DNA of 32,041 bases from an uncultured Alphaproteobacteria bacterium (GTDB taxonomy: Bacteria > Pseudomonadota > Alphaproteobacteria > Rs-D84 > CACZYB01): positions 1 through 32,041 of the forward strand of contig CALXYK010000014.1 in assembly GCA_944392955.1 (NCBI GenBank), written 5' to 3'. The first letter of the stretch is position 1; each line of letters begins with the position of its first letter. A program made the translations under genes and the position numbers. This document shows positions 1,018 through 17,030 of this stretch, piece after piece. The notes under the pieces are model-generated. The model had not been told where the DNA came from and made no database searches. It saw nothing but the letters and a program-made list of their open reading frames with translations.

Positions 1018-1045
1018 ATGTACCTAAGAGAGAATGAGGAAGGGA

Positions 1046-2119
1046 ATGACTAATAAATTAGAAGTCAATACTATTATTTTAGGTGATTGCATACAAGAAT
1101 TAAAAAAAATACCATCAAACTCTGTGGATATGGTTTTTGCAGATCCTCCTTATAACTTACAACTTAATAATAGGTTGGTAAGGCCTGATAATACTACCGT
1201 GGACGCTGTTGATGATTATTGGGATAAGTTTGAGAGTATGAGTGCCTATGATGATTTCTCTTTTAAATGGCTTAATGAAGTAAAACGGGTTATGAAAGAT
1301 GATGCTACTATTTGGGTGATTGGATCTTATCATAACATTTTCAGAGTTGGAACCGTTTTGCAAAACCTTGGGTTTTGGATTTTAAATGATATTGTATGGG
1401 TTAAAAATAATCCTATGCCTAATTTTAAGGGGACAAGGTTTACTAATGCTCATGAAACTCTTATTTGGGCTTCTAAATCTTCTAAATCAAAATATACTTT
1501 CAATTACGAAGCGATGAAAGCATTAAACGATGGACTTCAAATGCGTTCTGATTGGAATTTGCCTATTTGCACAGGTAATGAAAGAGTAAAAGATGAAAAT
1601 GGAGAAAAACTTCATTCCACTCAGAAACCTGAATCTTTATTACATCGTGTTATTTTATCTTCTTCTAATGTCGGTGATGTGATTTTAGATCCTTTCTTTG
1701 GAAGTGGAACTACCGGTGCCGTTGCAAAAAAATTAGGTCGTAACTTTATTGGTATAGAACAAGATAAAAAATATGTAGATGGTGCGAAAAAACGAATTGA
1801 TGCAGTAAAGAAAGGAAGTGTCATTGAAACAACTGAAAAGAAAAAACTTGTTCGTGTACCTTTTGGAAATTTAATAGAATATGGAATTTTGAATCCTGGT
1901 GATGTTTTAACTGATGAAAAAGGAAAGTTTAAAGCAAAAATACTTGCTGATGGAAGTATAAAGTCTAACAATATACATGGATCTATACACCAAGTTGCCG
2001 CACAACTACAAAACTTTCCGTCATGTAATGGTTGGAAGTTTTGGTATGTAGATAACAAAGATAAAAAGTTAATAGATGATTTAAGACAAAATTTCATTAG
2101 CAAAATGAATTTGCAATAA
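1046..2119 (+). CDS. ccrM: CcrM-type adenine-N6 DNA methyltransferase (GANTC)
   Basis: A 357-residue methyltransferase that closely follows Caulobacter CcrM from memory: DPPYNLQL (residues 33-40, motif IV, amino-methylation site), an [11 protein letters not shown]-like stretch, [28 protein letters not shown], then the SAM-binding [12 protein letters not shown]. Motif IV precedes the SAM motif, which is the beta-class order. The C-terminal about 100 residues ([12 protein letters not shown] ... GSIHQVAAQ ... CNGWKFWY) form the CcrM-specific extension (RAMA domain) needed for DNA recognition. CcrM methylates adenine in GANTC and times gene expression with replication in many alphaproteobacteria. 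I chose the second ATG (1046) because GAGGA sits five bases upstream; an in-frame ATG at 1034 would add four residues. It converges on the dipeptidase gene eight bases downstream. Confidence 0.96.
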
Positions 2120-3954: not shown

Positions 3955-3988
3955 TATAAAAAATCCTACACAAAGTAGGATTTTTTTT
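3955..3988. terminator. Bidirectional rho-independent terminator
   Basis: A stem AAATCCTAC (3961-3969) / GTAGGATTT (3975-3983) closes a five-base loop ACAAA. It is preceded by an A-run and followed by a T-run to 3988, so it can act in both directions. On the plus strand it ends the dehydrogenase transcript. On the minus strand it ends the VirB6 operon, whose last stop codon (complement of 3987-3989) overlaps the T-run. Confidence 0.88.
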
Positions 3989-6488
3989 ATAACTTTTTAT
4001 TTGGATTTATTCTACCTCTACCCCTTCGTTTATTTTTCTTCCACTTGGCTATTTCATCTTCTACAATATCTTCCATTTCTATTGCATTTTTTTCTGAAAT
4101 CTCAGAAAGTTCATTTTTCAATTTTCTGACTTTCCTTCTTAACATTGCTAAGCGTAAAGGTGAACTATTCATATCTATTGAATCTATTTCTGAATTTAGT
4201 TTATCTAACTCATCTTTTTTAATTGAAAGTATGACAGATTTTGCATCTATTTTAGCTGTACCAAAGTTTTTATTTAGTTTTTCAGATAATTTTCTTTCCT
4301 GATATAATTTTTCTAATTTATCCTTTCTTGCCTTTATATCACCTGCAATTTCACCTTCCATTTTATTAAACAAAGTTTTGTTTTCTGCTTTTTGTATAGT
4401 TCTTCCTTTTTCAACATGTTCTTTTAAATCCTTTTTAGTTTTTCGTGGAAGTTTATTTATTTGCTTTAACAACTTTTCCTTCATATATTCTTCCTTCATA
4501 ACTTCCATAGGTGTTGAAGCTGTTGATGTAGTATCTTTTGTTGTTAGAGGGAATAATATTTTTAAATCCTTTTGTATTACATCAGAAATACGTGAGATGG
4601 TTTCATCTGTATATATATTATCCATTTCCTTAGGAGTTGTCGTTAATAAAATATCTTCTATTTTTTCTTTTTCGGTTAAAGGAAGTTCCTTATACTCCTT
4701 ATAGTGAGATAATTTTTCAGATACAAATTCATGTTCTTGTTTCTTTAAATCTGAGATTTGATAATTTAATTCTACTTGCTCAATTGGTTGTGGACCATTA
4801 TCAAACATAGAAGAAGCAATTTCTTTTTCGTGATTTTTATTTGCAATATATTCTTCTTTTGTTTGTGGACCAATAGGTGTTTTAGAAGTATCTTCTTTTT
4901 GTTTTTCATATTCTTGGACTAAAAATTCTGGTGGAAGATCTGATACATCCTTTGCATCATTATTTTGAGGTTCTTTTAACTTATTTAAATTTTTCTTAAC
5001 TTCATCAAGTTTATTATATAAATTAACTTCTCTTTGTGCACCATTTTTAATATAGTTAATAGTGCTCATTGTAATTTTTTTAAGACCTTTGAATATATTA
5101 TCATTTTTCAATCCACTATATATAGAATCTGAAAAACTATCGGCCATAGAGATGCTTTCTCCTAATAACATCCATGATACAAGAGTTGCAAACAATATTG
5201 CTATAAATAATCCCATATTATTTAAAAATAAATTCAAAGTTCCAAGTGCATTGTCATTCAACCCCGTCCATTGAACTAAATTTTGTCCTAGGGTTTGTTT
5301 TTTATTTAGGTAATCAAATAAAGAGGATACAGAATATTGGGTATCAAATGTATTAGTTAGTAATTCTGTTAATAGAAATACTGATATACTTATAGATACG
5401 GCTAAAAAAGCCAATCTTACTGCACATCTTAAAATTCCCCAAAATAACTTCTCGGACAATTTGCTTCGTAAATTCACCATATCACTACTTGAAAAAGCCC
5501 AGGAGCCTATTGTTATAGGCATCATGACTCCGACCATAGCAAGTTGAATTATTATATCTATTATCAATGTAATATATGTAAATGCGACATATAGAAATGG
5601 TAGTGCTATGCCAACTCCTAAAACTACAACTAAAAAGTTCATAGCCCATCCAAACCATAAAAACCCCTGGAATAAAAAGATTGCAATGTTAACTGCCCAA
5701 AATGCTATAACATTTGGGATAAACGAAGTAAGGTTTTGTAGTTTTTCAGTTCCTAAACTTATTGCCCTGTTTTCTGCGATGCCTAATAGTCCAGTAGTTG
5801 CAATTTTGAACCCCAAATTTATTCCTGTATTATATGTATTGGAATATTCCCGTGTTATACATATTAAATTTTTAATAGTATTTGTATTAGTTTCATCTTC
5901 TGGATTGATAGAGTTAGCCCGAAGCATTTGTGATATATTTTCTGATAATTGTATATCATCACAATTAAATTTTGGTAGTGTATTTTCTGATAAATTAGAA
6001 AGTTTATTTTCAGTTTGCATCACACTATTTTCATTTCTGGTTTCTATCAAAATCCATTTTGCAAAACCAGAACCAAGATTCATTATTGGATCTATTGTAT
6101 AATGAAATATCTCATTTGCAGGAACTTTTGACAACATAGTTAATACGAAAAGTATTGTAAATAATTTAACAAAAATTCCCTTTAATAATTCATAAACATC
6201 ACCTTCCTGCTTTTTTATAACATTGTTCCAAATAAGCCATAAAAACCAAACTCCTAAACCAACTAATACAAGAGTATAACTGATAGAACTTAATATATCA
6301 TACATTTTATATACAAAATTAAATGTATAGGTATATATCCCTTCTACTAAATTACATTCCCAACATTCGCTACCATCTCTTATTGTAGAGGTGATAGTGT
6401 TATCAACCCCTGCATTTCTTATTTCCTGAGCATAAAGAGGAAATGCAAAGGTAAAACAAAACAACAATGTAAATAGTATTCTTTTCAT
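3987..6488 (-). CDS. VirB6/TrbL-like T4SS inner-membrane protein with long charged tail (fifth of five)
   Basis: 833 residues, last gene of the operon. An export signal covers residues 1-20 (cut expected after LYA). CWEC (C42, C45) precedes the first membrane segment (about 67-88); a second follows near 108-122. A periplasmic loop carries C176 and C210. A block of membrane segments (about 255-440) contains the VirB6-typical LPFLYVAFTYITLIID stretch and ends with LLGESISMADSF. Residues 450-833 are a highly charged, Lys/Glu-rich, probably coiled-coil tail ending in basic KKNKRRGRGR, expected in the cytoplasm. VirB6 proteins form the inner-membrane pore of T4SSs; classic ones have about 300 residues, so this resembles the extended Rickettsiales VirB6 proteins. 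The ATG overlaps the stop of the preceding gene (TAATG). The tail could bind nucleic acid or a partner; that is inference. Confidence 0.8.
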   Translation of the reverse strand: MKRILFTLLFCFTFAFPLYAQEIRNAGVDNTITSTIRDGSECWECNLVEGIYTYTFNFVYKMYDILSSISYTLVLVGLGVWFLWLIWNNVIKKQEGDVYELLKGIFVKLFTILFVLTMLSKVPANEIFHYTIDPIMNLGSGFAKWILIETRNENSVMQTENKLSNLSENTLPKFNCDDIQLSENISQMLRANSINPEDETNTNTIKNLICITREYSNTYNTGINLGFKIATTGLLGIAENRAISLGTEKLQNLTSFIPNVIAFWAVNIAIFLFQGFLWFGWAMNFLVVVLGVGIALPFLYVAFTYITLIIDIIIQLAMVGVMMPITIGSWAFSSSDMVNLRSKLSEKLFWGILRCAVRLAFLAVSISISVFLLTELLTNTFDTQYSVSSLFDYLNKKQTLGQNLVQWTGLNDNALGTLNLFLNNMGLFIAILFATLVSWMLLGESISMADSFSDSIYSGLKNDNIFKGLKKITMSTINYIKNGAQREVNLYNKLDEVKKNLNKLKEPQNNDAKDVSDLPPEFLVQEYEKQKEDTSKTPIGPQTKEEYIANKNHEKEIASSMFDNGPQPIEQVELNYQISDLKKQEHEFVSEKLSHYKEYKELPLTEKEKIEDILLTTTPKEMDNIYTDETISRISDVIQKDLKILFPLTTKDTTSTASTPMEVMKEEYMKEKLLKQINKLPRKTKKDLKEHVEKGRTIQKAENKTLFNKMEGEIAGDIKARKDKLEKLYQERKLSEKLNKNFGTAKIDAKSVILSIKKDELDKLNSEIDSIDMNSSPLRLAMLRRKVRKLKNELSEISEKNAIEMEDIVEDEIAKWKKNKRRGRGRINPNKKL

Positions 6489-8020
6489 TATGAAATATCC
6501 TTTGCCTCATTTTTAGTTTTATTTTCGTCCTTGGCCAATTCCTCGTCCATTAACTTTTTTATTTTTTTATCTTCTAAGAATTTATATTGTTCTCTTTTTA
6601 CCGTAGATGTTGTCCATTTCCAAAAACTTGTTAGTAATGACTTTCCGTATTTACCAACTTCAAACATATAACCACTTATTAACTTGGAATATGTTTTAAC
6701 ATTTCCCATAATCATAAGGGATAAAAGTCCAAATGTAAACATTGGAAGAAAGCTTCCGCCCGGATTACTTATACTTGGGATTTTAAAATCTATACCTATT
6801 CTTGCTAAACAAGTTTGTATTTGTGAAACGTTTCCACCCGCAGAATTGAAACATGCCCTGAAACCTTCGTTCTTCATAATATTAGCAGTCTGACTTGACA
6901 CCATATCTGTATAAATAAAATCAGGGAATAAATATGTAAAGTTATCAAGAGGACCAGGATAATACATATCTGCGATATAAACAAAAGATGAGTATAATAT
7001 GCCTAAAAATATGCTATACATTATAATATAAAAACTCATACCGAACAAAGAACTAATCCCTTTTGATGAAAAACTTTTAGTCCTGTCGTATGCATATCCA
7101 CCTATCATCAATGGTATAAAAGATATTAAAATACCCATAGTGAACACTATATCTATTAACATAAATGGTATTGTTAAATACATTAAAAAGAAAATTGCAA
7201 CTATGGCCATGCCGGCAACTATATCAGGTAAGTATTTTGCATTACCCATTGGATTTTCCATAAAGTTTCGCCATGACATTCCTATCATATTAGAACCTGC
7301 TGTCATAGAACTTAGAAAAACAGTATTAACAGAATTCATTAAACATAACATATCATTTTTTAATTCTTCTGTAATAATACCACCTACTTCGCTTTTGGGA
7401 TAATATAACTTATCACATACATTCACCTTTAATGTTTCTGTCCCTATACCTATACCCATTTTTAAAATAGGGACTGCTGTATTTTCAAAAATGGTATTCG
7501 CCATATTTGTTATGTATTGTTCATTTTTATTTTTATCAGTGGTGGAAAATAAGGCACCCCCAATTACTCCTATAACTATAACTTTTTTTGCAATATCACG
7601 AAGCATTGAAGATACATCTGATTTTTGATCCTTTATCAAATTATCATACATATACATCAATAGCCAAACCGCAAATCCCATAATTATTAGTGTCCAAGCA
7701 ATATCTGCGATATATATGTATAACTTTAACCCCATCAAACTCATTAAATCAAAACATTTTGCAAAAAGGCTACAACTCCAACAAGTATTAAAATCAACTG
7801 CACTAAATTTACCATCTATGACTTCTGAGCCATTCATACTTGCCCACCATGTTTCAAATGACGTTCCAATAGTCCAATCACCACTTGCTAGGCTTCCTGC
7901 TATGGCAAAAGCAATAAGGGCCCCTAATCCCAAAACGACAGAGGATAACATTACCTTTAAACTGGCAAAGAAAAACCTAAATATATTTCCAAATTTTTTT
8001 CTTACAAAATCATTAAACAT
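6488..8020 (-). CDS. VirB6/TrbL-like T4SS inner-membrane protein (fourth of five)
   Basis: 510 residues, the shortest and most canonical of the five. Residues 22-45 form an N-terminal membrane segment, followed by an exported stretch of about 35 residues and CWSC (C80, C83). Two membrane segments (about 105-125 and 147-160) precede a periplasmic loop with C202 and C226. Further segments lie at about 270-365, with TIPFMLIDIVFTMGILISF typical of VirB6, and a last one near 425-440. A Lys-rich cytoplasmic tail of about 60 residues follows. GGAGG six bases upstream supports the ATG at 8020, which overlaps the preceding stop codon by eight bases. Predicted role: part of the T4SS inner-membrane channel. 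Confidence 0.82.
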   Translation of the reverse strand: MFNDFVRKKFGNIFRFFFASLKVMLSSVVLGLGALIAFAIAGSLASGDWTIGTSFETWWASMNGSEVIDGKFSAVDFNTCWSCSLFAKCFDLMSLMGLKLYIYIADIAWTLIIMGFAVWLLMYMYDNLIKDQKSDVSSMLRDIAKKVIVIGVIGGALFSTTDKNKNEQYITNMANTIFENTAVPILKMGIGIGTETLKVNVCDKLYYPKSEVGGIITEELKNDMLCLMNSVNTVFLSSMTAGSNMIGMSWRNFMENPMGNAKYLPDIVAGMAIVAIFFLMYLTIPFMLIDIVFTMGILISFIPLMIGGYAYDRTKSFSSKGISSLFGMSFYIIMYSIFLGILYSSFVYIADMYYPGPLDNFTYLFPDFIYTDMVSSQTANIMKNEGFRACFNSAGGNVSQIQTCLARIGIDFKIPSISNPGGSFLPMFTFGLLSLMIMGNVKTYSKLISGYMFEVGKYGKSLLTSFWKWTTSTVKREQYKFLEDKKIKKLMDEELAKDENKTKNEAKDIS

Positions 8021-10004
8021 TTTTATCCTCCGGTGAAAGATTATCTTTCTGTTCCGTTTTGTTTTCCTTGTTTTGTTTTTGATCTTTCTCTTTTTCTTTT
8101 AGTAACTTATTCGCGATTGCGCCTGCTTCTAATTTTAAATTTACCTTTTCTACAACAACACTGGTAGACCATTTAACCATACTTTTAGTCCATTCAAAAA
8201 ACTTTTTAGGGGCAGTTTCCGTGCTTGCATAACCACTGAATTTATTTGCGATTGTTAAAGCTTGGCCCATTAAATACCAACAAATTATTCCTGTGTATAA
8301 TATTTCTAATAACTTATTTGTATTAAATGAAAGCATAAGTAATATTTGCGAGGTCATTTCCTGAGCATTATTATTTTCTAATGCAGATTGAAAAGTGTAG
8401 AAATCCAATGTCGATATATACATCATTAACAAAGAAATAACCGAACACATTATAGAAATAGAAACTATTTGAAAAATTGAAGATAAAAATGTATCTAGCC
8501 CCTGTTTCAAAAATGATTTTCCCCTGTCAAATGCATAGCCCATTAAAAATAGTGGGAAAAGAAATACCACAATAGCAATTTTAAACAATGATTCTATAAA
8601 GAAAAATGGGACGGTTATATTGAATATAAAGAACATACCCATAATACTTATACCTAAAACAACCTTTACTAAACCTGCAAAAATATCAAAATTGGTTAAT
8701 TGTCGCCAACCTTGTATCACCTGATATTTTCCTATCATAATATTTAGGTTGTTGAAATCACCTATTCTTTCTATTGTACAGACTATGTTTTGTTTAACAT
8801 CTTTTGAAAATAACACTTGGTTATCAGAAATATCTGTTGTTGCATATCTACAACTCCATTCCCTATCATTTTTATCTATCGCCTTTGTCATAACTTTGTT
8901 ATACCCCATCATGAAATCTGTTAATGGGCGAACCGTATAATTTATTATGTTATTTTCGTCTGTTATAGATACTGATAAAAATGCACCTACTATCACTACC
9001 CAAACTGATTTTGTGAAAAATGTTTTTATATAACCATATTCATCTTGTTTCCTTAAAACATTATCAAAAAACATAAATAAGGTCCAAAGAGAAAAAATCA
9101 CAACTAGAAAATCTATTGCATATCGTGATAACTTATCATACATTACAAAACCTATCCTGGACACTGTATTAAATGCTATTTCAAACATTGTGCAAGATGT
9201 ACAAGACAAAGTTCGTTTTATTTCATCACCTATATTAGAAATACGACAAGAATCATCTTCCCAAATACCAGCATGAACCGATGAACCTAAAACATAAACT
9301 CTGTTCTGACTGATATTATTTTGGTTAAATTCTTTGATTTCTCCAACTATTTCTCCAAATGCATTTATTATATAACGACCAACGACACCTACCGGTGAAA
9401 GAGCCTCTGGGAAAATATTAAATGCACTTAAATTACTAAAACTATTTATACAATCTATACCAAACATTTTAAACATAGGTTTATAAACACTACTTGATTT
9501 AGCATTACTTACTAAATTTTTACCAGTAGTTCTAGAAGTAAATAAACCTTTGATAAAAAATATTGGTCTTCCGAATAAAAGAGGAACTTTGTCTTGGATT
9601 TCTAGTTTTGCCTTTGCTATTGCTGAATTGATTACCTTATTAAAACTGCGATTGCTGGAAGATGAATCATCAATAAAGTATTTATTTAGGTAATCAAATT
9701 TTTCCGGTGTAATGCCAAGTTTCCTTAGTCTTTCAATATCATTGACTGAAATATTATCTGGAAATAACTGATAATACGAGTTAATGTTCATAGTTAAGAT
9801 ATTATGATATTCCTTTAAATACCTAATTTCCCAACAATATAAATCAGAATTAGAAAGGTTGACTTCTGTATTTGATAAACCGTATGCAGATGGGGTTTGA
9901 CATTTTATAATAGTGCTTTGAGAAAAACAACTAAATCCACTTAATAGCATTACTAAAAATACTATTGTAAAAGAAAAAAATGTTTTTAATTTATTACTTT
10001 TCAT
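8013..10004 (-). CDS. VirB6/TrbL-like T4SS protein with large periplasmic N-terminal domain (third of five)
   Basis: 663 residues from the ATG at 10004; an upstream TTG at 10037 would add eleven basic residues in front of what is otherwise a clean signal peptide (1-30), so I rejected it. About 230 residues of predicted periplasmic domain contain C35, C57, C185 and C253, which line up with four Cys of the next upstream paralogue, as do the motifs KLGITPEKFDYL and INAFGEIVGEI. CTSC (C268, C271) precedes the first membrane segment, and C385 and C409 follow in the second periplasmic loop. The membrane block (about 445-600) ends with YLMGQALTIANKFSGY. The charged tail ends with Lys/Glu/Asn-rich sequence. 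It overlaps the upstream gene by eleven bases. Predicted role: T4SS inner-membrane channel. Confidence 0.78.
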   Translation of the reverse strand: MKSNKLKTFFSFTIVFLVMLLSGFSCFSQSTIIKCQTPSAYGLSNTEVNLSNSDLYCWEIRYLKEYHNILTMNINSYYQLFPDNISVNDIERLRKLGITPEKFDYLNKYFIDDSSSSNRSFNKVINSAIAKAKLEIQDKVPLLFGRPIFFIKGLFTSRTTGKNLVSNAKSSSVYKPMFKMFGIDCINSFSNLSAFNIFPEALSPVGVVGRYIINAFGEIVGEIKEFNQNNISQNRVYVLGSSVHAGIWEDDSCRISNIGDEIKRTLSCTSCTMFEIAFNTVSRIGFVMYDKLSRYAIDFLVVIFSLWTLFMFFDNVLRKQDEYGYIKTFFTKSVWVVIVGAFLSVSITDENNIINYTVRPLTDFMMGYNKVMTKAIDKNDREWSCRYATTDISDNQVLFSKDVKQNIVCTIERIGDFNNLNIMIGKYQVIQGWRQLTNFDIFAGLVKVVLGISIMGMFFIFNITVPFFFIESLFKIAIVVFLFPLFLMGYAFDRGKSFLKQGLDTFLSSIFQIVSISIMCSVISLLMMYISTLDFYTFQSALENNNAQEMTSQILLMLSFNTNKLLEILYTGIICWYLMGQALTIANKFSGYASTETAPKKFFEWTKSMVKWSTSVVVEKVNLKLEAGAIANKLLKEKEKDQKQNKENKTEQKDNLSPEDKNV

Positions 10005-12021
10005 TTTTGTCTTCTTTGCTTTCCGTTTTATTTGCAAGTTTGTTGTCTTCCTTTTGTAAATTTTTATCCTCTTCCCTTGAGGCGGTAAGTTTCATAGAAC
10101 TGGTAAATAAATTTTTTATGTTTTTACCTATTGTCATTTTCCCCATGCTGCCACCATAACTGGATGCCAATGTATCAAGTTTAGCATAAATGTAATATAT
10201 GCAATATATTATAAATAAAAACTTTGTAATAGACAATAAGTCATACGGAATATTATTTGTAATAATAGATGTATCGTTTTCTGCTATTGCCCTATTTAAT
10301 TGTTGCATTATATTTTCTTTTGATGTGCCAAAATAAAATGCATTTAATAAGGCCGAATTAAACATACTAAATACTGCCAAATTAACCATAGTTAATCCAA
10401 AATTTTTAGCTATGTTTATTATATTTTTTACATTAAATCCAATAAATGGGAAAACATATCCGAATACATAAAATGGCCATAAAATAGCAAGTTTTAAAAA
10501 TTCTAATAATCCATCTAAGATATAAAAAGAAATCATCAAACTGATTAAAAAATATAACATAAATATAATAAAACCGAAAATAAATCCTAAAAACTTATGT
10601 TCAGATTGACTTTGGGAATTGAACAAATCCTTCATCAACACTTCGCCCATAGTCATTTGCTTACCATTTGCTTGTAATGTATTAGTTAAAAAGCATATTA
10701 TATTGCCCATAGTTTCTTTTGAAATAACTATTGAATCTTGGAGTTGCTCAAATGCTTTCACTTGATTTAATTTAGATACCGGTGGAATAACTTGATCGTT
10801 TTGTTCCGCCCTTCTTTTATTATTTAGTTCATCTACTATTTGTGAACTATTACAGGTAAATTCTGAATTTTCAGTATTACCAACCTGAATAATACTATCT
10901 GAAACCGCGATAGTTAAATCTATTACAGGTTCAATGGTCCAAGAAAATAAATATTTAGGTGGAACTAAAATAACTGCACTTACTATAAAAATTGCCTTTA
11001 ATGTTTTTGATATTGATTTTGGATAGTCAGAAAAATCAGATGTAAATGGAATTCCTTTGAAGCCTTTTAAAAATTCATAAAGTAAAAATAATGCCCCAAA
11101 GACTACTAAAAACTCTAAAATTATACTTCGGAAATTTGTATACATATATTCAAACAAATAAGAAATCTCATTAAAGACTATCAATATATAAGGACAAAGG
11201 TAGCAAGTACTGTTCCTGTTTGCGATTTCTTGTAATGTATTGGCCTTACAAACCTTTTCATTCCAATCAATATTTGCAACTAATGGACGATTTATAATGT
11301 CAGATGAAAAAGTTATTTCACGAGTAGAACTGCCAAGAGCCCTGTTATCATAAATTTTCCCAACTACCATACCAAACATATTTAATAAATTATTACCATC
11401 TATCACAATAGGAGCCAATGCCGGTGGCAGTGCGGAAATAATCTTTTTATAACTTGGTGTAGTATCTGAATAAATAGAGTCTGTAGAAATTTCGTATTTG
11501 TCCTCCTTGATAGTGCTGCAAGCCTTATATCGCTTATCCTTATTAACTATACTACCAACAGAATATTCTTCAAATATATCGGGATTATCTTCAAACTCCC
11601 TGTATGAAACTATGTAATAGTTATTATTTATTCGTGCCTGAGAAATGCCAGATTGAATATAACTATTTACTCCATCCTTTGTTAGAAGTAGTGAATAACT
11701 TTCTTCATCTATATAATTTTCTATTATATCAGGGGTGATACCAACCTGTCTTAGGTAATTAAAATTCGCCTGTAATAATACAGGATATAATGATTTATAT
11801 TCAGATAAAGTGATATTGCCCTTTTGATTTTTTTCTAAATAAACTATATCACTACAATAATAATCCGGAGAATATTCTGATGTAATTACAGAAGGTGAAG
11901 TAAAATATATAGATGCCTTTTCATAAGGACAATTGGAACGAGTAGTTTCAGAAGCGGAAAAGCATACTTTCCCAAAAGAAAAGATTAAAACAAGTATGTA
12001 TAAATAAAGTTTCTTTATCAT
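9994..12021 (-). CDS. VirB6/TrbL-like T4SS protein with large periplasmic N-terminal domain (second of five)
   Basis: 675 residues with a signal peptide (1-22), then a long exported domain with C31, C56, C168 and C258. The segment NYLRQVGITPDIIENYID and the later NMFGMVVGKIYD align with the neighbouring 663-residue protein, so the two share a homologous extracytoplasmic module. CYLC (C273, C276) precedes the first membrane segment; a second segment (about 342-355) and a periplasmic loop with C390 and C443 follow. The C3-C4 spacing (53) is the longest of the five. Membrane segments at about 475-640 are followed by a short charged tail. AGGAG nine bases upstream supports the ATG, which directly abuts the preceding stop codon. 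Predicted role as in its paralogues. Confidence 0.76.
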   Translation of the reverse strand: MIKKLYLYILVLIFSFGKVCFSASETTRSNCPYEKASIYFTSPSVITSEYSPDYYCSDIVYLEKNQKGNITLSEYKSLYPVLLQANFNYLRQVGITPDIIENYIDEESYSLLLTKDGVNSYIQSGISQARINNNYYIVSYREFEDNPDIFEEYSVGSIVNKDKRYKACSTIKEDKYEISTDSIYSDTTPSYKKIISALPPALAPIVIDGNNLLNMFGMVVGKIYDNRALGSSTREITFSSDIINRPLVANIDWNEKVCKANTLQEIANRNSTCYLCPYILIVFNEISYLFEYMYTNFRSIILEFLVVFGALFLLYEFLKGFKGIPFTSDFSDYPKSISKTLKAIFIVSAVILVPPKYLFSWTIEPVIDLTIAVSDSIIQVGNTENSEFTCNSSQIVDELNNKRRAEQNDQVIPPVSKLNQVKAFEQLQDSIVISKETMGNIICFLTNTLQANGKQMTMGEVLMKDLFNSQSQSEHKFLGFIFGFIIFMLYFLISLMISFYILDGLLEFLKLAILWPFYVFGYVFPFIGFNVKNIINIAKNFGLTMVNLAVFSMFNSALLNAFYFGTSKENIMQQLNRAIAENDTSIITNNIPYDLLSITKFLFIIYCIYYIYAKLDTLASSYGGSMGKMTIGKNIKNLFTSSMKLTASREEDKNLQKEDNKLANKTESKEDKNEK

Positions 12022-13677
12022 TTAAACTTGCTCCTTTTCTGATTGTTCCTTTTGAAGTTTTTTTAGTTTACGTTTTTTTAACAATGTATCAATATAACTT
12101 CCCTTATCTGCTAAACCTATGGAACCTGATTTTCTGTATTCCTTTACCTCTCTTATCACAGAAGTTGTAAATGTATAAGAGGACTTTCCCAATTTTTTTA
12201 GTGGTTCAACTAAACTAGAATCTGAAATATTTCCATTAAACCAACCGGCAAAAGTTTGACTTTCCTTCATTATCAATGCATTAATACCTATTGCAAAAAA
12301 GACATACAAAAAATACCAATAATCACCAACCATAGCATTAAAACTTTCTATATCGCCTGATTGTAAAAATGATAATGCCTGTTGTGGTGTAGTAATATTT
12401 GAACCAATTGGAGCGGAAAACATTCCTCCTAAAATCCAATCATTTATTTCTGCACACATTACCATTCCAATACAAAGGAATATTAAACCTATTGCATAAC
12501 TGAATGTCCTTTGTAAGGCTGTTGTGGCAAAACTTCTAGTTTGTTCAAAAATATAACATCCTGCGATAATAGGAAGAAGTATTATTGTCACACCTAGAAA
12601 TAGCAACTGCTCTATTATAATAAAAGCAAAAAATAAATTTATTATAAATAATCCTATTGTAATACCTAAACCTGCAACACCCATTCTGACATTTTCATTA
12701 GATAAGAAACTTATTATAACAGGAAGAATACCAAACCAATCATCATGTTCCTTTATAAATTTTCCTGTTCTTACCATATTTTTGGCTGTATTTTTTCCCT
12801 TTTCCAGTTGGTCTTTTAACTTTTTTAAATTTTCTAATCTTTCGGTATTTTTGGGATCTTTTTTCTTAAATTTCTCGACCAAAATATCCAATCTTTTTAT
12901 TTTATCTTCTATTACCTTTAATATTCTGTTACCTATTTTTTTTGTAATAAAGCCCCCAACCCATGCAAAAACTTTCGTTGATACACCAACTACTATTGTT
13001 GTTAAGATAGGTTCCGCACCATATTCAAACAACTCTATCCCTATATCTGTATAAGTGTATTTTAAGGCATGGACTTCCTTTAAAAGACAAACCATATTAT
13101 TTTTTGTATTTTCGGAAAGGGCATGACCTTCTTTGTAAATCAATTCGTCCGGCATGTTTTGACATTCTGGTGGTATCATTTTGGGATCGGTTATTTTCTT
13201 TCGTAATAGCTCTCTTCCTACACCACTTCCAAAATCAAGTGTGATTTCAAAAGTATTCGCGAAAATATTTCGGGGATTATTTACAATGAATAATCCAACA
13301 ACGGCAACTACTAAAAAAATCTTTTTATAAATTGTTTTAAAATAATTCTCATCAATTTTATCCTGTTCTGGATATAATGACAAACTTGGTGATAAAGCCT
13401 TATATGTTTCATATACAATCCACAATGCTAAGCAAACTGAAATTATGACTATAACCTTGTCTTGAAAATAAGAAAAAGTTTGCATACTGATAACTGAAAA
13501 AGCATCATAAATATTTTCAAAAACATTACATGTCCAACAATCTTTGAAAATTGGATAAAGGTTTGTTCCCAACACAAAAAAGGAAACACATACGGCTAGA
13601 ACTAAAATCCATTTTACCCATGTAAAAATGGTGCCTAAAATTTCAAAAAAACCTGTATCACTTTTATTAGAAGCCAA
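12022..13677 (-). CDS. VirB6/TrbL-like T4SS protein, TTG start (first of five)
   Basis: 551 residues. An N-terminal membrane segment (about 19-38) is followed by CWTC (C47, C50), membrane segments at about 73-92 and 118-132, and a periplasmic loop with C172 and C197. Residues about 245-315 are a Lys/Glu-rich, probably coiled-coil insertion not seen in the other four. The membrane block then resumes (about 318-470), ending with ALIMKESQTFAGWF, which matches the equivalent position in the 833- and 663-residue paralogues. The only start near the N-terminus is a TTG directly after the stop codon of the 88-residue gene (TAATTG), with AAGGA seven bases upstream, so translation is probably coupled. 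Predicted role: T4SS inner-membrane channel. Confidence 0.78.
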   Translation of the reverse strand: MASNKSDTGFFEILGTIFTWVKWILVLAVCVSFFVLGTNLYPIFKDCWTCNVFENIYDAFSVISMQTFSYFQDKVIVIISVCLALWIVYETYKALSPSLSLYPEQDKIDENYFKTIYKKIFLVVAVVGLFIVNNPRNIFANTFEITLDFGSGVGRELLRKKITDPKMIPPECQNMPDELIYKEGHALSENTKNNMVCLLKEVHALKYTYTDIGIELFEYGAEPILTTIVVGVSTKVFAWVGGFITKKIGNRILKVIEDKIKRLDILVEKFKKKDPKNTERLENLKKLKDQLEKGKNTAKNMVRTGKFIKEHDDWFGILPVIISFLSNENVRMGVAGLGITIGLFIINLFFAFIIIEQLLFLGVTIILLPIIAGCYIFEQTRSFATTALQRTFSYAIGLIFLCIGMVMCAEINDWILGGMFSAPIGSNITTPQQALSFLQSGDIESFNAMVGDYWYFLYVFFAIGINALIMKESQTFAGWFNGNISDSSLVEPLKKLGKSSYTFTTSVIREVKEYRKSGSIGLADKGSYIDTLLKKRKLKKLQKEQSEKEQV

Positions 13678-14000: not shown

Positions 14001-14018
14001 ATAATTTTGAGGTTTTTT

Positions 14019-15335
14019 ATGGCTGAAAACGATAAAAATATATCGGAAAATGACAAAAACAACTCAGTTAGTCAGCAAAACATAAAATTAGATATTATTG
14101 AGAAACTCAAATATCTTGTTGAAAACTATAATCCTGAAAAAAAAGATGATACTTTAAAGAAAATTGACAATTTAGAAAATGACGATAAATCTCAAAAATT
14201 CAAAAATTTCTTTGATTTGATAAAAAATACTATCAATGGAAATGTTTCAAGGGCGGAATATAAAAAACAGCTTGAAAAGTTGGAAGGTGAATATCAAACA
14301 CAATTAGACTTTGATATGGATGCCCTATTTACAGCGGGGGTGCAAAAACAATCCGAAGGTGAAACTATTGCTGATTTAGTATCAGAAATAAAGGCTGAAC
14401 ATTCAGATAAATCAAATGAGGAAATTTCTGCATCTATAAAAGAGATAATTCAGAATGAGGCAACTATTGCCGAGGTAGATGAAGATGATATTTTTGAAAC
14501 AGATTTTAAACTTTCTAGACCAGAAAAAGAAAAAATAAAAAAGATATATAAGTATAAAGTGGAAGGTAAAATTACCTCGGGTATAGAAGATTTGGATACA
14601 TTTTTGGGAATTATTCAACCTGCTTTGAATCAAATAGTTATAACAGGTTGGAGGGGAATTTTTGGACTGAGTGATTTAAAAAACTTTGCACTTGAAAATT
14701 TTGAAAATTGGCAAGCGAAGAAAAAAAATCTTGCTACTGCTTGGAAAACATTGCAAGCATTAGGTTTTGTAGATGCAAATGAAAAATTTTCTTACTTAGG
14801 TTCTAATAAAGAAAAAGAAGATTTAATCGCAAAAATCTTTAATGACAATATGTGTAGAAAATTAAATGAATTTTTAAAAGAAGAAGAACTCAGAAATTCT
14901 GTAAGTACAGAACAAGATGGTATTCAAAATACTCCTATCAATGATGCTAATTCCTTTAAACCGAGAAAAAAGTTTTTTGATCACAAATATAGTGCTGAAG
15001 AACCTAGAATTGTTTTAGTTTCAACTTTGCAAAATTTAATTAAAGATAAATGTAGAGATGAAAATGGAAAAATTTCAGAAGATGGTGAAAAACTGCTTAA
15101 AGGATTTTCGGTTATTATAGATTTGTTTAATATGGAAGACAAGGATACTATTCCAAACTATTATGCTAAAGATTTTGCTTATATATTCAAAGAAGCCAAA
15201 AAAAGAACGACACCAGGAGATCCACCTATTGAATATGACGAAACTTTGATAACAAAGTTAGATGAGGAAGAGGAAAATTCCAAATTGGATCGTTTATTGG
15301 AAGAAAAGTTTAAACAAATGCAGGAGAGTAAATAA
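14019..15335 (+). CDS. Acidic soluble protein of unknown function, T4SS-linked operon
   Basis: 439 residues without a signal peptide or membrane segment, expected in the cytoplasm. The first 170 residues are Lys/Asp/Glu/Asn-rich and low in hydrophobics, probably partly disordered or helical. A more globular stretch (about 175-260) includes GIEDLDTFLGIIQPALNQ and ITGWRGIFGLSDL; residues about 325-395 hold a second ordered part. I recognise no family. I chose the ATG at 14019 over the in-frame TTG at 14007, because GAGG lies six bases before the ATG. It is the first gene of the plus-strand operon divergent from the VirB6 genes and ends two bases before the next gene, so it may supply a cytoplasmic partner, chaperone or effector; that is inference from position. 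Confidence 0.7.
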   Translation: MAENDKNISENDKNNSVSQQNIKLDIIEKLKYLVENYNPEKKDDTLKKIDNLENDDKSQKFKNFFDLIKNTINGNVSRAEYKKQLEKLEGEYQTQLDFDMDALFTAGVQKQSEGETIADLVSEIKAEHSDKSNEEISASIKEIIQNEATIAEVDEDDIFETDFKLSRPEKEKIKKIYKYKVEGKITSGIEDLDTFLGIIQPALNQIVITGWRGIFGLSDLKNFALENFENWQAKKKNLATAWKTLQALGFVDANEKFSYLGSNKEKEDLIAKIFNDNMCRKLNEFLKEEELRNSVSTEQDGIQNTPINDANSFKPRKKFFDHKYSAEEPRIVLVSTLQNLIKDKCRDENGKISEDGEKLLKGFSVIIDLFNMEDKDTIPNYYAKDFAYIFKEAKKRTTPGDPPIEYDETLITKLDEEEENSKLDRLLEEKFKQMQESK

Positions 15336-15337
15336 AA

Positions 15338-16450
15338 ATGAAAAAATTATTTTATTTTTTACTTATTACTTCTGTGTTATTGACTCCGATTTTTTATTGG
15401 CTTCATAATTGGTGGGGAATTACCTTTTCAAACTTTTTTTCAGTTCAAAGGTTAATGTATATATATTCTCAGGATACCTTCCTTTTATTTACAACTATTA
15501 TAAATTTTGCCTTATATCTGTTCGCAATATATAAATTATTCAAAAGAAATGAGGTTGTTAAACCTGAAAATGTAAATGCAAATATTCAAAATGAAAACAA
15601 AAATGAGACTCCGGAATTTTTAATGAAAAATAGTTCAGGAACTTCTTCTATAAATTGGGAAAATTTATATGGACCTAATAAAACGGTAAAGGAAGAAGAA
15701 AAAATCACTGCTGAAAAGAAGCAGGAAATAAAAGAAGTAAAATCCGAAAAAATTGAAACTCCTAATATACAGACAGAACCTGCTACACCTAATATTGCTA
15801 TTAACTCAAAGCAAGAAGATAAAAAAGTTGAACAACCTTTACCTCCTGAAAAAAATGATAATATTATAGATATAAGGCAACCTTTGAATATAAAGGATGT
15901 ATATAAGGTTCAAATTTCATCTGTCTTAGAAAAAAATGGCTATAAGAATTTGGGCGATTGTGTAATTGATAATATAGATATTGACTTTATTGCTATTGCG
16001 GATAGTGATACCTTGGTTTTGGGGATAATAAATGATGAGTATGGTGATATTATTGCAAATGAGGTTCCTAATTCCGATGAGAAATTCCCTTCTTGGTTCA
16101 CAAATGAGAAAAAATACAACTCCCCTGTTTGCGAAGTAAAAACCGCAGTTGTGGCTGTTGAAAAAGTAATAAAAGAAGTTCTTCCAGAAGACAGCGAAAT
16201 ATTGATAAAACCAGTTGTAGTCATTCCTAATGCTGTTGTTTCTAATAAAACTGATATAGAAAGTAAATGGGCAGAAATGGGGGTATCAGTAGTTAAGTTT
16301 TTAAATTATTCTGATTTGCCTGATTTGATGGAAGTATTACCTGAAAAATCTGGGACCACAGTTTTGGAAAGTTATCAAACTTTTGTGCAAACTTTGATTA
16401 AGTATTTTAATAAAAAGGCGAAAAATTACCCTGTAAAAAAGACAGGATAG
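15338..16450 (+). CDS. Two-TM membrane protein with possible degenerate NERD-like domain
   Basis: 370 residues. Two membrane segments (about 5-25 and 47-65) are followed by a Lys/Glu/Pro-rich linker (70-175) and a globular C-terminal domain (185-365), so the domain should sit on the cytoplasmic side. The pattern IDFIAI (215-220), then LVLGIIN (226-232), EYGDII, and after about 25 residues NSPVCEVKTAVVAVEKVI and PVVVIP, resembles the layout of NERD / PD-(D/E)xK nuclease-like domains. The expected E-x-K on the second strand reads G229-I-I231, so catalytic activity is unlikely. The fold call is inference by eye. It follows the acidic protein gene by two bases and precedes the 188-residue gene by 13, with AGGAG upstream of the latter. 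Confidence 0.65.
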   Translation: MKKLFYFLLITSVLLTPIFYWLHNWWGITFSNFFSVQRLMYIYSQDTFLLFTTIINFALYLFAIYKLFKRNEVVKPENVNANIQNENKNETPEFLMKNSSGTSSINWENLYGPNKTVKEEEKITAEKKQEIKEVKSEKIETPNIQTEPATPNIAINSKQEDKKVEQPLPPEKNDNIIDIRQPLNIKDVYKVQISSVLEKNGYKNLGDCVIDNIDIDFIAIADSDTLVLGIINDEYGDIIANEVPNSDEKFPSWFTNEKKYNSPVCEVKTAVVAVEKVIKEVLPEDSEILIKPVVVIPNAVVSNKTDIESKWAEMGVSVVKFLNYSDLPDLMEVLPEKSGTTVLESYQTFVQTLIKYFNKKAKNYPVKKTG

Positions 16451-16463
16451 GAGATAACTAAAA

Positions 16464-17030
16464 ATGCTGTTTAGTGAAGAATATTATCATGATTTAATTG
16501 CAAAACTTGGTTTACCTGAAATGCCTATATTAAAAGTTAAATACCAAGGTAAACCTTCTGTGAATTTAAAAAATTTTAGATTAGATTTTTTTAAAATTTC
16601 AAAACAACTTATGAAATATGTTTCTTTTAATAATATTACTCAGTTAATAGATGCAGGTTTTACCTTTGATATTATAGAAGAACTTCACGATGGAATAATT
16701 CCTGAAAACCTAACTATCTATTTAAAAAAACCTTTGGAATATGGTGGTAAATTAGAATTTTCAAATATGTTTTTAATAAAAACAAGGCCTTTTAAAAATA
16801 TATTGGATACATTTTTAGAAAATCAAATAATATCTTTTAATCTTGAACACCCTGGATATGATAGGAATAAGGGATTTTTGCTTCCTACTGAATTTTATGT
16901 GCCAAATCCAGAAGGTGTTATTTTCCTTCCTGCATTAAAAGATTTTGCGGGGGCTGGTGGAAACACTTCTACTGATAAAATGTCCGAAATAGGAAGTACT
17001 ATGTTTTTAAAAAATGACGGGAGATTTTAA
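16464..17030 (+). CDS. Protein of unknown function encoded directly before a SUKH protein
   Basis: 188 residues, no signal peptide, membrane segment or Cys. The N-terminal half is basic and mixed alpha/beta (NLKNFRLDFFKISKQL, LIDAGFTFDIIEEL); the C-terminal part has GFLLPTEFYVPNPEGVIF, a glycine-rich GAGGNTS stretch and ends in FLKNDGRF. I recognise no family. AGGAG precedes the ATG. It ends two bases before the SUKH gene, the classic toxin-then-immunity order, so it could be an effector or toxin, but no nuclease, deaminase or peptidase motif is visible. Equally it could be an ordinary component of the system. Confidence 0.65.
   Translation: MLFSEEYYHDLIAKLGLPEMPILKVKYQGKPSVNLKNFRLDFFKISKQLMKYVSFNNITQLIDAGFTFDIIEELHDGIIPENLTIYLKKPLEYGGKLEFSNMFLIKTRPFKNILDTFLENQIISFNLEHPGYDRNKGFLLPTEFYVPNPEGVIFLPALKDFAGAGGNTSTDKMSEIGSTMFLKNDGRF

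What the first reader, a model, noticed from the sequence alone, without database searches (positions are those of the whole stretch)
3987..13677. Five tandem VirB6-like proteins keep one four-cysteine periplasmic signature
All five share CxxC just before the first core membrane segment and two more Cys in the next periplasmic loop. Positions: C42/C45/C176/C210 (833 residues), C80/C83/C202/C226 (510), C268/C271/C385/C409 (663), C273/C276/C390/C443 (675) and C47/C50/C172/C197 (551). The gap from CxxC to the third Cys is 114-131 residues in every case, and from third to fourth 24-34 in four of them (53 in the fifth). Little else is conserved by eye. With the N-termini exported, all four Cys should face the periplasm. 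This suggests conserved disulfides or metal sites at the mouth of a hetero-oligomeric VirB6 channel. Tandem VirB6 arrays are known in Rickettsiales; I am not aware of this signature being described as a defining trait.
Basis: partly seen in the sequence, partly recalled or inferred. Interest (0 to 1): 0.75.

Follow-up and report, generated by a model that had tools for sequence, protein, structure and literature searches.

The report
Paired cysteines in five VirB6 proteins
A gut bacterium with a very small genome carries five side-by-side versions of one part of a protein-export machine, and each keeps two pairs of cysteines that very likely act as separate clamps on the outer face of the inner membrane; this is a real, deeply conserved and apparently undescribed feature of a known protein family, not a new kind of system.

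Summary
All five proteins carry CxxC before the first core helix and two more Cys in the next periplasmic loop, and all five are VirB6 homologues. In a blind alignment of 44 relatives (paralogues 12-22% identical to the reference), the four Cys are four of only seven columns conserved at 90% or more. The "single four-Cys signature" needs correcting. Across the order (about 46 genomes, four families, five syntenic paralogues each) the Cys behave as two independent pairs. CxxC can be lost while the loop pair stays, and the reverse, and the loop pair is present or absent together. This favours two separate disulfide-like units over one tetrathiolate metal site. P2 has a third pair; P3 and P4 have two more in an N-terminal periplasmic domain. 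CxxC is older than the array: single-copy VirB6 of Magnetospirillum and Roseibium plasmids have it, while the top-scoring TrbL/VirB6 controls lack both pairs. The "invariant essential Trp" of VirB6 is missing in all five. True Rickettsiales VirB6 could not be obtained, so "defining trait of Rickettsiales" remains untested. Best reading: structural disulfides on the periplasmic face of a VirB6 pentamer, possibly a heteropentamer. New variant of a known kind.

The parts
3987..6488 (-). VirB6-like P1 (833 aa). CxxC C42/C45 (codons 6365-6363, 6356-6354), loop pair C176/C210 (5963-5961, 5861-5859)
   Evidence: homologous to P2 by hhalign 99.0%; no Pfam hit on its own
6488..8020 (-). VirB6-like P2 (510 aa). 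CxxC C80/C83 (7783-7781, 7774-7772), loop pair C202/C226 (7417-7415, 7345-7343), third pair C390/C404 (6853-6851, 6811-6809)
   Evidence: TrbL PF04610 E 1.3e-3, over the cut-off; Cys columns; fold
8013..10037 (-). VirB6-like P3 (674 aa from TTG, 663 from ATG). CxxC C279/C282 (9203-9201, 9194-9192), loop pair C396/C420 (8852-8850, 8780-8778)
   Evidence: model pLDDT 72, best PDB match R388 TrwI/VirB6 8rt9_F E 1e-4
9246..9902 (-). N-terminal periplasmic domain of P3 with two further Cys pairs, C46/C68 and C196/C264
   Evidence: alpha/beta secondary structure in the model
9994..12021 (-). VirB6-like P4 (675 aa). CxxC C273/C276 (11205-11203, 11196-11194), loop pair C390/C443 (10854-10852, 10695-10693)
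   Evidence: homologous to P2 and P3 by hhalign 98.0% and 99.9%
11248..11931 (-). N-terminal periplasmic domain of P4, related to that of P3, with Cys pairs C31/C56 and C168/C258
12022..13677 (-). VirB6-like P5 (551 aa from TTG). CxxC C47/C50 (13539-13537, 13530-13528), loop pair C172/C197 (13164-13162, 13089-13087)
   Evidence: TrbL PF04610 E 2e-6, 28.1 bits, over the cut-off; hhalign 99.5% to P2

Best explanation
The five genes encode VirB6-type subunits of a type IV secretion system, the inner-membrane base of its central stalk. In each, two transmembrane helices (alpha1, alpha2) cross the inner membrane and the rest lies on the periplasmic side. The cysteines form two independent structural pairs: a CxxC at the periplasmic start of alpha1, and a loop pair just after alpha2, most likely two disulfides that brace the base of the stalk. 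P2 adds a third pair, and P3 and P4 add two more in an extra N-terminal periplasmic domain. Shown: the Cys, their conservation, VirB6 homology, and loss and retention in pairs. Supported by inference: periplasmic placement. Inferred only: that the bonds form, via DsbA; and that the five paralogues fill the five seats of a VirB6 pentamer as a heteropentamer.
For: Conservation: in 10 genomes of the same family the Cys columns of each paralogue are nearly invariant, and the four Cys are 4 of 7 columns at 90% or more in 44 cores. Pairing: in about 234 order-level sequences the loop Cys come as two or none with few exceptions (one sequence with a single Cys, three with extra ones), and CxxC and the loop pair are lost independently (P3 f5, P1 f2 and P1_G008 keep only CxxC; P1 f5/f6, P4 f5, P5 f2 and P5 of genus g4 keep only the loop pair; P4 f6 has neither). 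The extra pairs also go as pairs (P4 of g4 lost C31/C56; P3_G007 lost C196/C264). Placement: all conserved Cys pairs named here fall in predicted periplasmic segments and none in the charged cytoplasmic loops or tails; the P3 model matches R388 VirB6, in which only alpha1 and alpha2 enter the membrane (PMC9259494). Context: VirB3-VirB4 and VirB8-VirB9-VirB10 genes; DsbA-like proteins with CGYC and CGHC. Five paralogues are kept in nearly all genomes of the order; solved VirB6 and DotA stalks are pentamers (PMC9259494, PMC12857230).
Against: No DsbB or VKOR was found in the family, so how DsbA would be re-oxidised in what the literature calls a non-respiring gut lineage is unknown. CxxC is only four residues long, so its joint loss could be one local event. 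Most of the 33 f5 genomes belong to one genus and are not independent. The f5 P4 loop pair aligns some 5-22 residues away from the f1 pair, so its equivalence is uncertain. The loop-Cys count used a wide window, not exact columns. No model coordinates were available, so no Cys-Cys distance was measured. CxxC pairs can also bind metal or be redox-active.
Confidence: 0.62

Rival explanations
1. The four Cys of one subunit form a single tetrathiolate metal site (zinc or iron) holding alpha1 to the next periplasmic loop.
For: Four Cys with conserved spacing in all five paralogues of the window and family; CxxC is a common metal-binding motif.
Against: The two pairs are retained separately in whole families: P3 of f5 keeps CxxC without loop Cys, P1 of f5/f6 keeps the loop pair without CxxC. 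No conserved His stands out as a further ligand in the consensus.
Confidence: 0.1
2. The CxxC of one subunit is linked to the loop pair of its neighbour in the pentamer, as a disulfide relay or shared metal site, so the Cys fix the order of five different subunits.
For: Independent loss of the pairs rules out an obligatory site within one subunit. One cyclic order of the paralogues (5 to 1 to 4 to 3 to 2 to 5) satisfies 'wherever a CxxC is kept, the neighbour's loop pair is kept' in every lineage tabulated, and it is the only one of 24 that does.
Against: Random loss patterns of the same sizes admit some such order in 12-39% of trials, so this is not significant. Two plain local disulfides explain the data more simply.
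Confidence: 0.12
3. The CxxC is a redox-active switch at the N-terminus of alpha1, gating the stalk in response to host or gut redox state, while the loop pair is an ordinary disulfide.
For: CxxC sits at or just before the start of a long helix in both models, as thioredoxin-type motifs do; it is also present in single-copy VirB6 of free-living alphaproteobacteria.
Against: The residues between the two Cys are not conserved (WE, WS, TS, YL, WT), unlike a catalytic motif, and it is lost in several paralogues without loss of the gene.
Confidence: 0.1
4. The Cys are kept only by shared ancestry and have no specific bond or function.
For: All five paralogues descend from one ancestor that probably had them (tree).
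Against: Paralogues are only 12-22% identical to the reference elsewhere, yet these columns are conserved at 90% or more, and loss occurs in pairs.
Confidence: 0.04

Closest known systems
VirB6/TrbL (Pfam PF04610); R388 TrwI/VirB6 pentamer (PDB 8rt9, 7o3v)
   Same: Pfam match for P5 and P2; P3 model best match is TrwI, E 1e-4, and P2's weak top match is the same chain; two N-proximal membrane helices then a hydrophobic body; invariant Pro of the conserved loop.
   Different: Five diverged paralogues rather than one; two Cys pairs that the highest-scoring control TrbL/VirB6 proteins lack; much larger, with N- or C-terminal extensions; the conserved-loop Trp reported as essential is absent.
Rickettsiales vir homologue (rvh) T4SS, RvhB6a-e of Rickettsia and VirB6-1 to -4 of Anaplasmataceae (PMC2653234, PMC7648143, PMC10732058)
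   Same: Tandem, highly diverged extended VirB6 genes, five copies as in Rickettsia; vir genes scattered in clusters.
   Different: Published VirB6 motifs there contain no Cys and do contain an invariant Trp (PMC2653234, PMC10732058), which all five proteins lack here; only one VirB4 found, whereas rvh has two. Direct alignment with Rickettsiales sequences was not possible.
CxxC-bearing single-copy VirB6 of conjugative-type T4SS in free-living Alphaproteobacteria (Magnetospirillum gryphiswaldense pMSR-1, Roseibium aggregatum plasmid)
   Same: CxxC directly before the first core helix, e.g. CWTC in pMSR-1, identical to P5.
   Different: Single copy and small (335-389 aa), without the loop Cys pair or extensions.

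Membership tests
VirB6/TrbL family (PF04610) | Profile match over the curated cut-off | tested here: met
   P5 28.1 bits against 25.9; P2 over the cut-off in the genome search. P1, P3 and P4 do not match Pfam on their own but are homologous to P2/P3 by hhalign 98-99.9%
VirB6/TrbL family (PF04610) | Fold of the R388 VirB6 stalk subunit | tested here: met
   P3 model to 8rt9_F, E 1e-4, probability 1.00, TM 0.57 by target; P2 weaker, E 0.2, same top hit
VirB6/TrbL family (PF04610) | Conserved loop P-x7-F-x2-T-x6-W with the essential Trp | tested here: not met
   Pro kept in nearly all, [FY] common, Trp absent in every order-level sequence of P1-P5 at the aligned column
Functional T4SS context | Other VirB core genes in the same genome | tested here: met
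   VirB4, VirB3, VirB8, VirB9 and VirB10; VirB11, VirD4, VirB2 and VirB5 not searched
Rickettsiales rvh T4SS | Three to five tandem VirB6 genes with large flanking extensions | tested here: met
   five in the window; array of five across the order
Rickettsiales rvh T4SS | Duplicated VirB4 (also VirB8, VirB9) | tested here: inconclusive
   one VirB4 match in a 95.6% complete genome; a degenerate second copy could be missed; VirB8/VirB9 copies not counted
Rickettsiales rvh T4SS | Sequence kinship to RvhB6a-e or Anaplasma VirB6-1 to -4 | not testable with these tools
   no Rickettsiaceae found in the class sample (best pyrophosphatase identity 65% to what I recall is the R. prowazekii protein, PDB 3d53); the one genome-contig scan returned only this order
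Pentameric VirB6 as heteropentamer | Five different subunits in one ring | not testable with these tools
   constant copy number of five is suggestive only
Single four-Cys metal site | All four ligands retained together | tested here: not met
   pairs lost separately in several lineages

The most novel reading that the evidence does not exclude
The five paralogues form an obligate, ordered VirB6 heteropentamer in which the CxxC of one subunit and the loop Cys pair of the next make inter-subunit bonds, so paired Cys loss across lineages records the seating order of the ring (a candidate order is 5-1-4-3-2).
Probability: 0.1. Interest if true: 0.82.

Novelty: new variant of a known kind. Interest (0 to 1): 0.5.

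Why it matters
VirB6 expansion to four or five paralogues in host-dependent alphaproteobacteria is long known and unexplained. A conserved set of paired Cys gives (i) a sequence handle for recognising these very diverged subunits where Pfam fails, (ii) a direct biochemical test, non-reducing gels and crosslinks, of whether different paralogues sit in one ring, and (iii) evidence that a five-gene VirB6 array is fixed across a large gut-dwelling order of about 1 Mb genomes in which T4SS-dependent partner interaction has hardly been considered. That would tie the copy number five to the five-fold symmetry of the VirB6 stalk.

Tried and rejected
Third PF04610 hit in the genome (G000:C14:61491): an FtsW-type protein between murein genes, a chance hit. 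PDB sequence search with the core profile: no hit. Naming class-level genomes through pyrophosphatase: f80 is not Anaplasma-like, and no Rickettsiaceae in the sample. Plasmid search with P3: no match. Literature on VirB6 with CXXC or disulfide: nothing describing such a signature in the papers held; two key Rickettsia T4SS reviews are not held. Cyclic-order idea: one solution exists but 12-39% of random patterns give one too. Heme attachment rejected: no CxxCH in the five. Chance rejected. Cys-Cys distances from models: no coordinates are released to the session.
Full report
What was checked. The window (32 kb) is part of contig C14 of a 915 kb, 95.6% complete genome. Five ORFs on the minus strand, 3987-13677, overlap or abut each other. 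P3 is 674 aa from a TTG or 663 aa from an ATG, which accounts for the different numbering. Shuffling each protein makes the joint pattern very improbable, about 2e-11 as a product.

Identity. P5 passes the Pfam TrbL/VirB6 cut-off and P2 does so in the genome search. P1, P3 and P4 have no Pfam hit but are homologous over the core: hhalign 99.0% (P2/P1), 98.0% (P2/P4), 99.9% (P3/P4), 99.5% (P2/P5), with most of the cysteines in register. The AlphaFold2 model of P3 (mean pLDDT 72, pTM 0.63) finds R388 TrwI/VirB6 as its best solved structure, E 1e-4. The P2 model is poorer (59) but has the same top hit. The genome also has VirB4 and VirB3 and a VirB8-VirB9-VirB10 cluster, so this is a scattered vir-type T4SS.

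Who it is. Relatives by sequence are gut and termite-gut MAGs named 'Alphaproteobacteria bacterium' or 'Rickettsiales bacterium' by their submitters (the termite origin is my reading of the isolate names). The order holds many genomes of about 0.7-1.1 Mb, mostly of one genus. That fits the GTDB order Rs-D84 with Candidatus Enterousia, described as reduced, non-respiring gut symbionts or parasites (PMC12306168); this assignment is my inference.

Conservation within the family. In the same family (10 genomes with a match) the five-gene array recurs, wherever the contig is long enough, with each paralogue recognisable. CxxC and the loop Cys are invariant in P2, P3 and P4, 8/8 and 7/8 in P1, 6/8 and 8/8 in P5. 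A blind alignment of 44 cores leaves only seven columns at 90% or more: P239, C16, C19, C138, C162, G178 and G206.

Conservation across the order. Of 190 genomes, 186 match, most with five VirB6 genes. Gene order is the same (P5-P4-P3-P2-P1), with P5 inverted head-to-head in family f5. A tree groups P2 as one clade and the others mostly by position, so the array probably predates the order's radiation, though deep support is weak. The cysteines behave as two independent pairs. P2 keeps both almost everywhere and adds C390/C404 in 47 of 48. P3 in f5 keeps CxxC only. P1 in f5 and f6 keeps the loop pair only. P4 in f5 keeps the loop pair only, although its alignment is shifted. P4 in f6 has neither. 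P5 in f2 and genus g4 keeps the loop pair only. P1 in f2 and in G008 keeps CxxC only. Of about 234 sequences one has a single loop Cys and three have extra ones; the rest have two or none. All four combinations of presence and absence occur, which argues for two separate bonds and against one four-ligand site.

P3 and P4 share an N-terminal periplasmic domain with two more pairs (C46/C68 and C196/C264; C31/C56 and C168/C258), aligned to each other and also lost as pairs.

Beyond the order. In 387 class-level genomes only 27 match the profile, five of them besides the window's own genome from the same order. Arrays in several other families (f15, f22, f43, f46, f64, f80) carry CxxC before the first helix, often with loop Cys, commonly three in f43 and f64. 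Two genomes with only one profile match (f106, f119) have all four Cys. Small single-copy VirB6 with CxxC but no loop pair occur in other alphaproteobacteria and on named plasmids of Magnetospirillum gryphiswaldense and Roseibium aggregatum. The highest-scoring TrbL/VirB6 controls have neither (L166-L183). So CxxC is the wider and probably older trait, and the loop pair is the addition typical of the extended, mostly tandem forms.

Mechanism. Hydropathy and charge put CxxC and loop Cys on the periplasmic side in all five. In R388 the VirB6 pentamer is anchored by only two N-proximal helices with the rest periplasmic (PMC9259494), which would put the third pair of P2 outside too. Two DsbA-like proteins with CGYC and CGHC are encoded, but no DsbB or VKOR was detected. 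The simplest reading is local disulfides bracing the base of the stalk. Solved VirB6 and DotA stalks are pentamers (PMC9259494, PMC12857230), so five paralogues for five seats is an attractive but untested hypothesis; a Cys-based seating order can be written down but is not statistically supported.

Comparison with what is known. Five tandem RvhB6 in Rickettsia and four VirB6 in Anaplasmataceae are known (PMC2653234, PMC7648143). Published motifs for these contain an invariant, essential Trp and no Cys (PMC2653234, PMC10732058). Here that Trp is absent in all five paralogues throughout the order. I therefore do not file the array as rvh, only as similar to it.

Noticed in passing
window 3987-13677 and order-level homologues: The Trp described as invariant and essential in VirB6, including Rickettsiales, is missing at its motif position in all five paralogues across the order, while the Pro of the same loop is kept.
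   Followed up: yes
window 9246-9902 and 11248-11931: P3 and P4 share an extra N-terminal periplasmic domain with two more Cys pairs and a shared LR.xGITP motif; no Pfam family.
   Followed up: partly
L220:4841-6370 (G000 contig C7): The VirB9 homologue (509 aa) ends in a SPOR domain, a peptidoglycan-binding module fused to a T4SS outer-ring protein.
   Followed up: no
G000 and its family: Two DsbA-like oxidases (CGYC, CGHC) but no DsbB or VKOR detected; how disulfides are formed without a known re-oxidant is unexplained.
   Followed up: partly
window 14007-17030: Divergently transcribed genes beside the array (442 and 370 aa, then 188 aa), with no Pfam hit; similar-sized Cys-poor ORFs lie at the same place in other genomes of the genus; possibly part of the same system.
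   Followed up: no
G022, loci L115 and L116: One genome carries two copies of the five-gene VirB6 array on different contigs (10 matches).
   Followed up: no
class-level loci L131, L133, L138, L140, L143, L144: In families f43, f46 and f64 the loop often holds three Cys spaced about 21-26 and then 21 residues instead of two.
   Followed up: no
window 1034-2119: CcrM-like cell-cycle DNA methyltransferase gene kept in this reduced genome.
   Followed up: no
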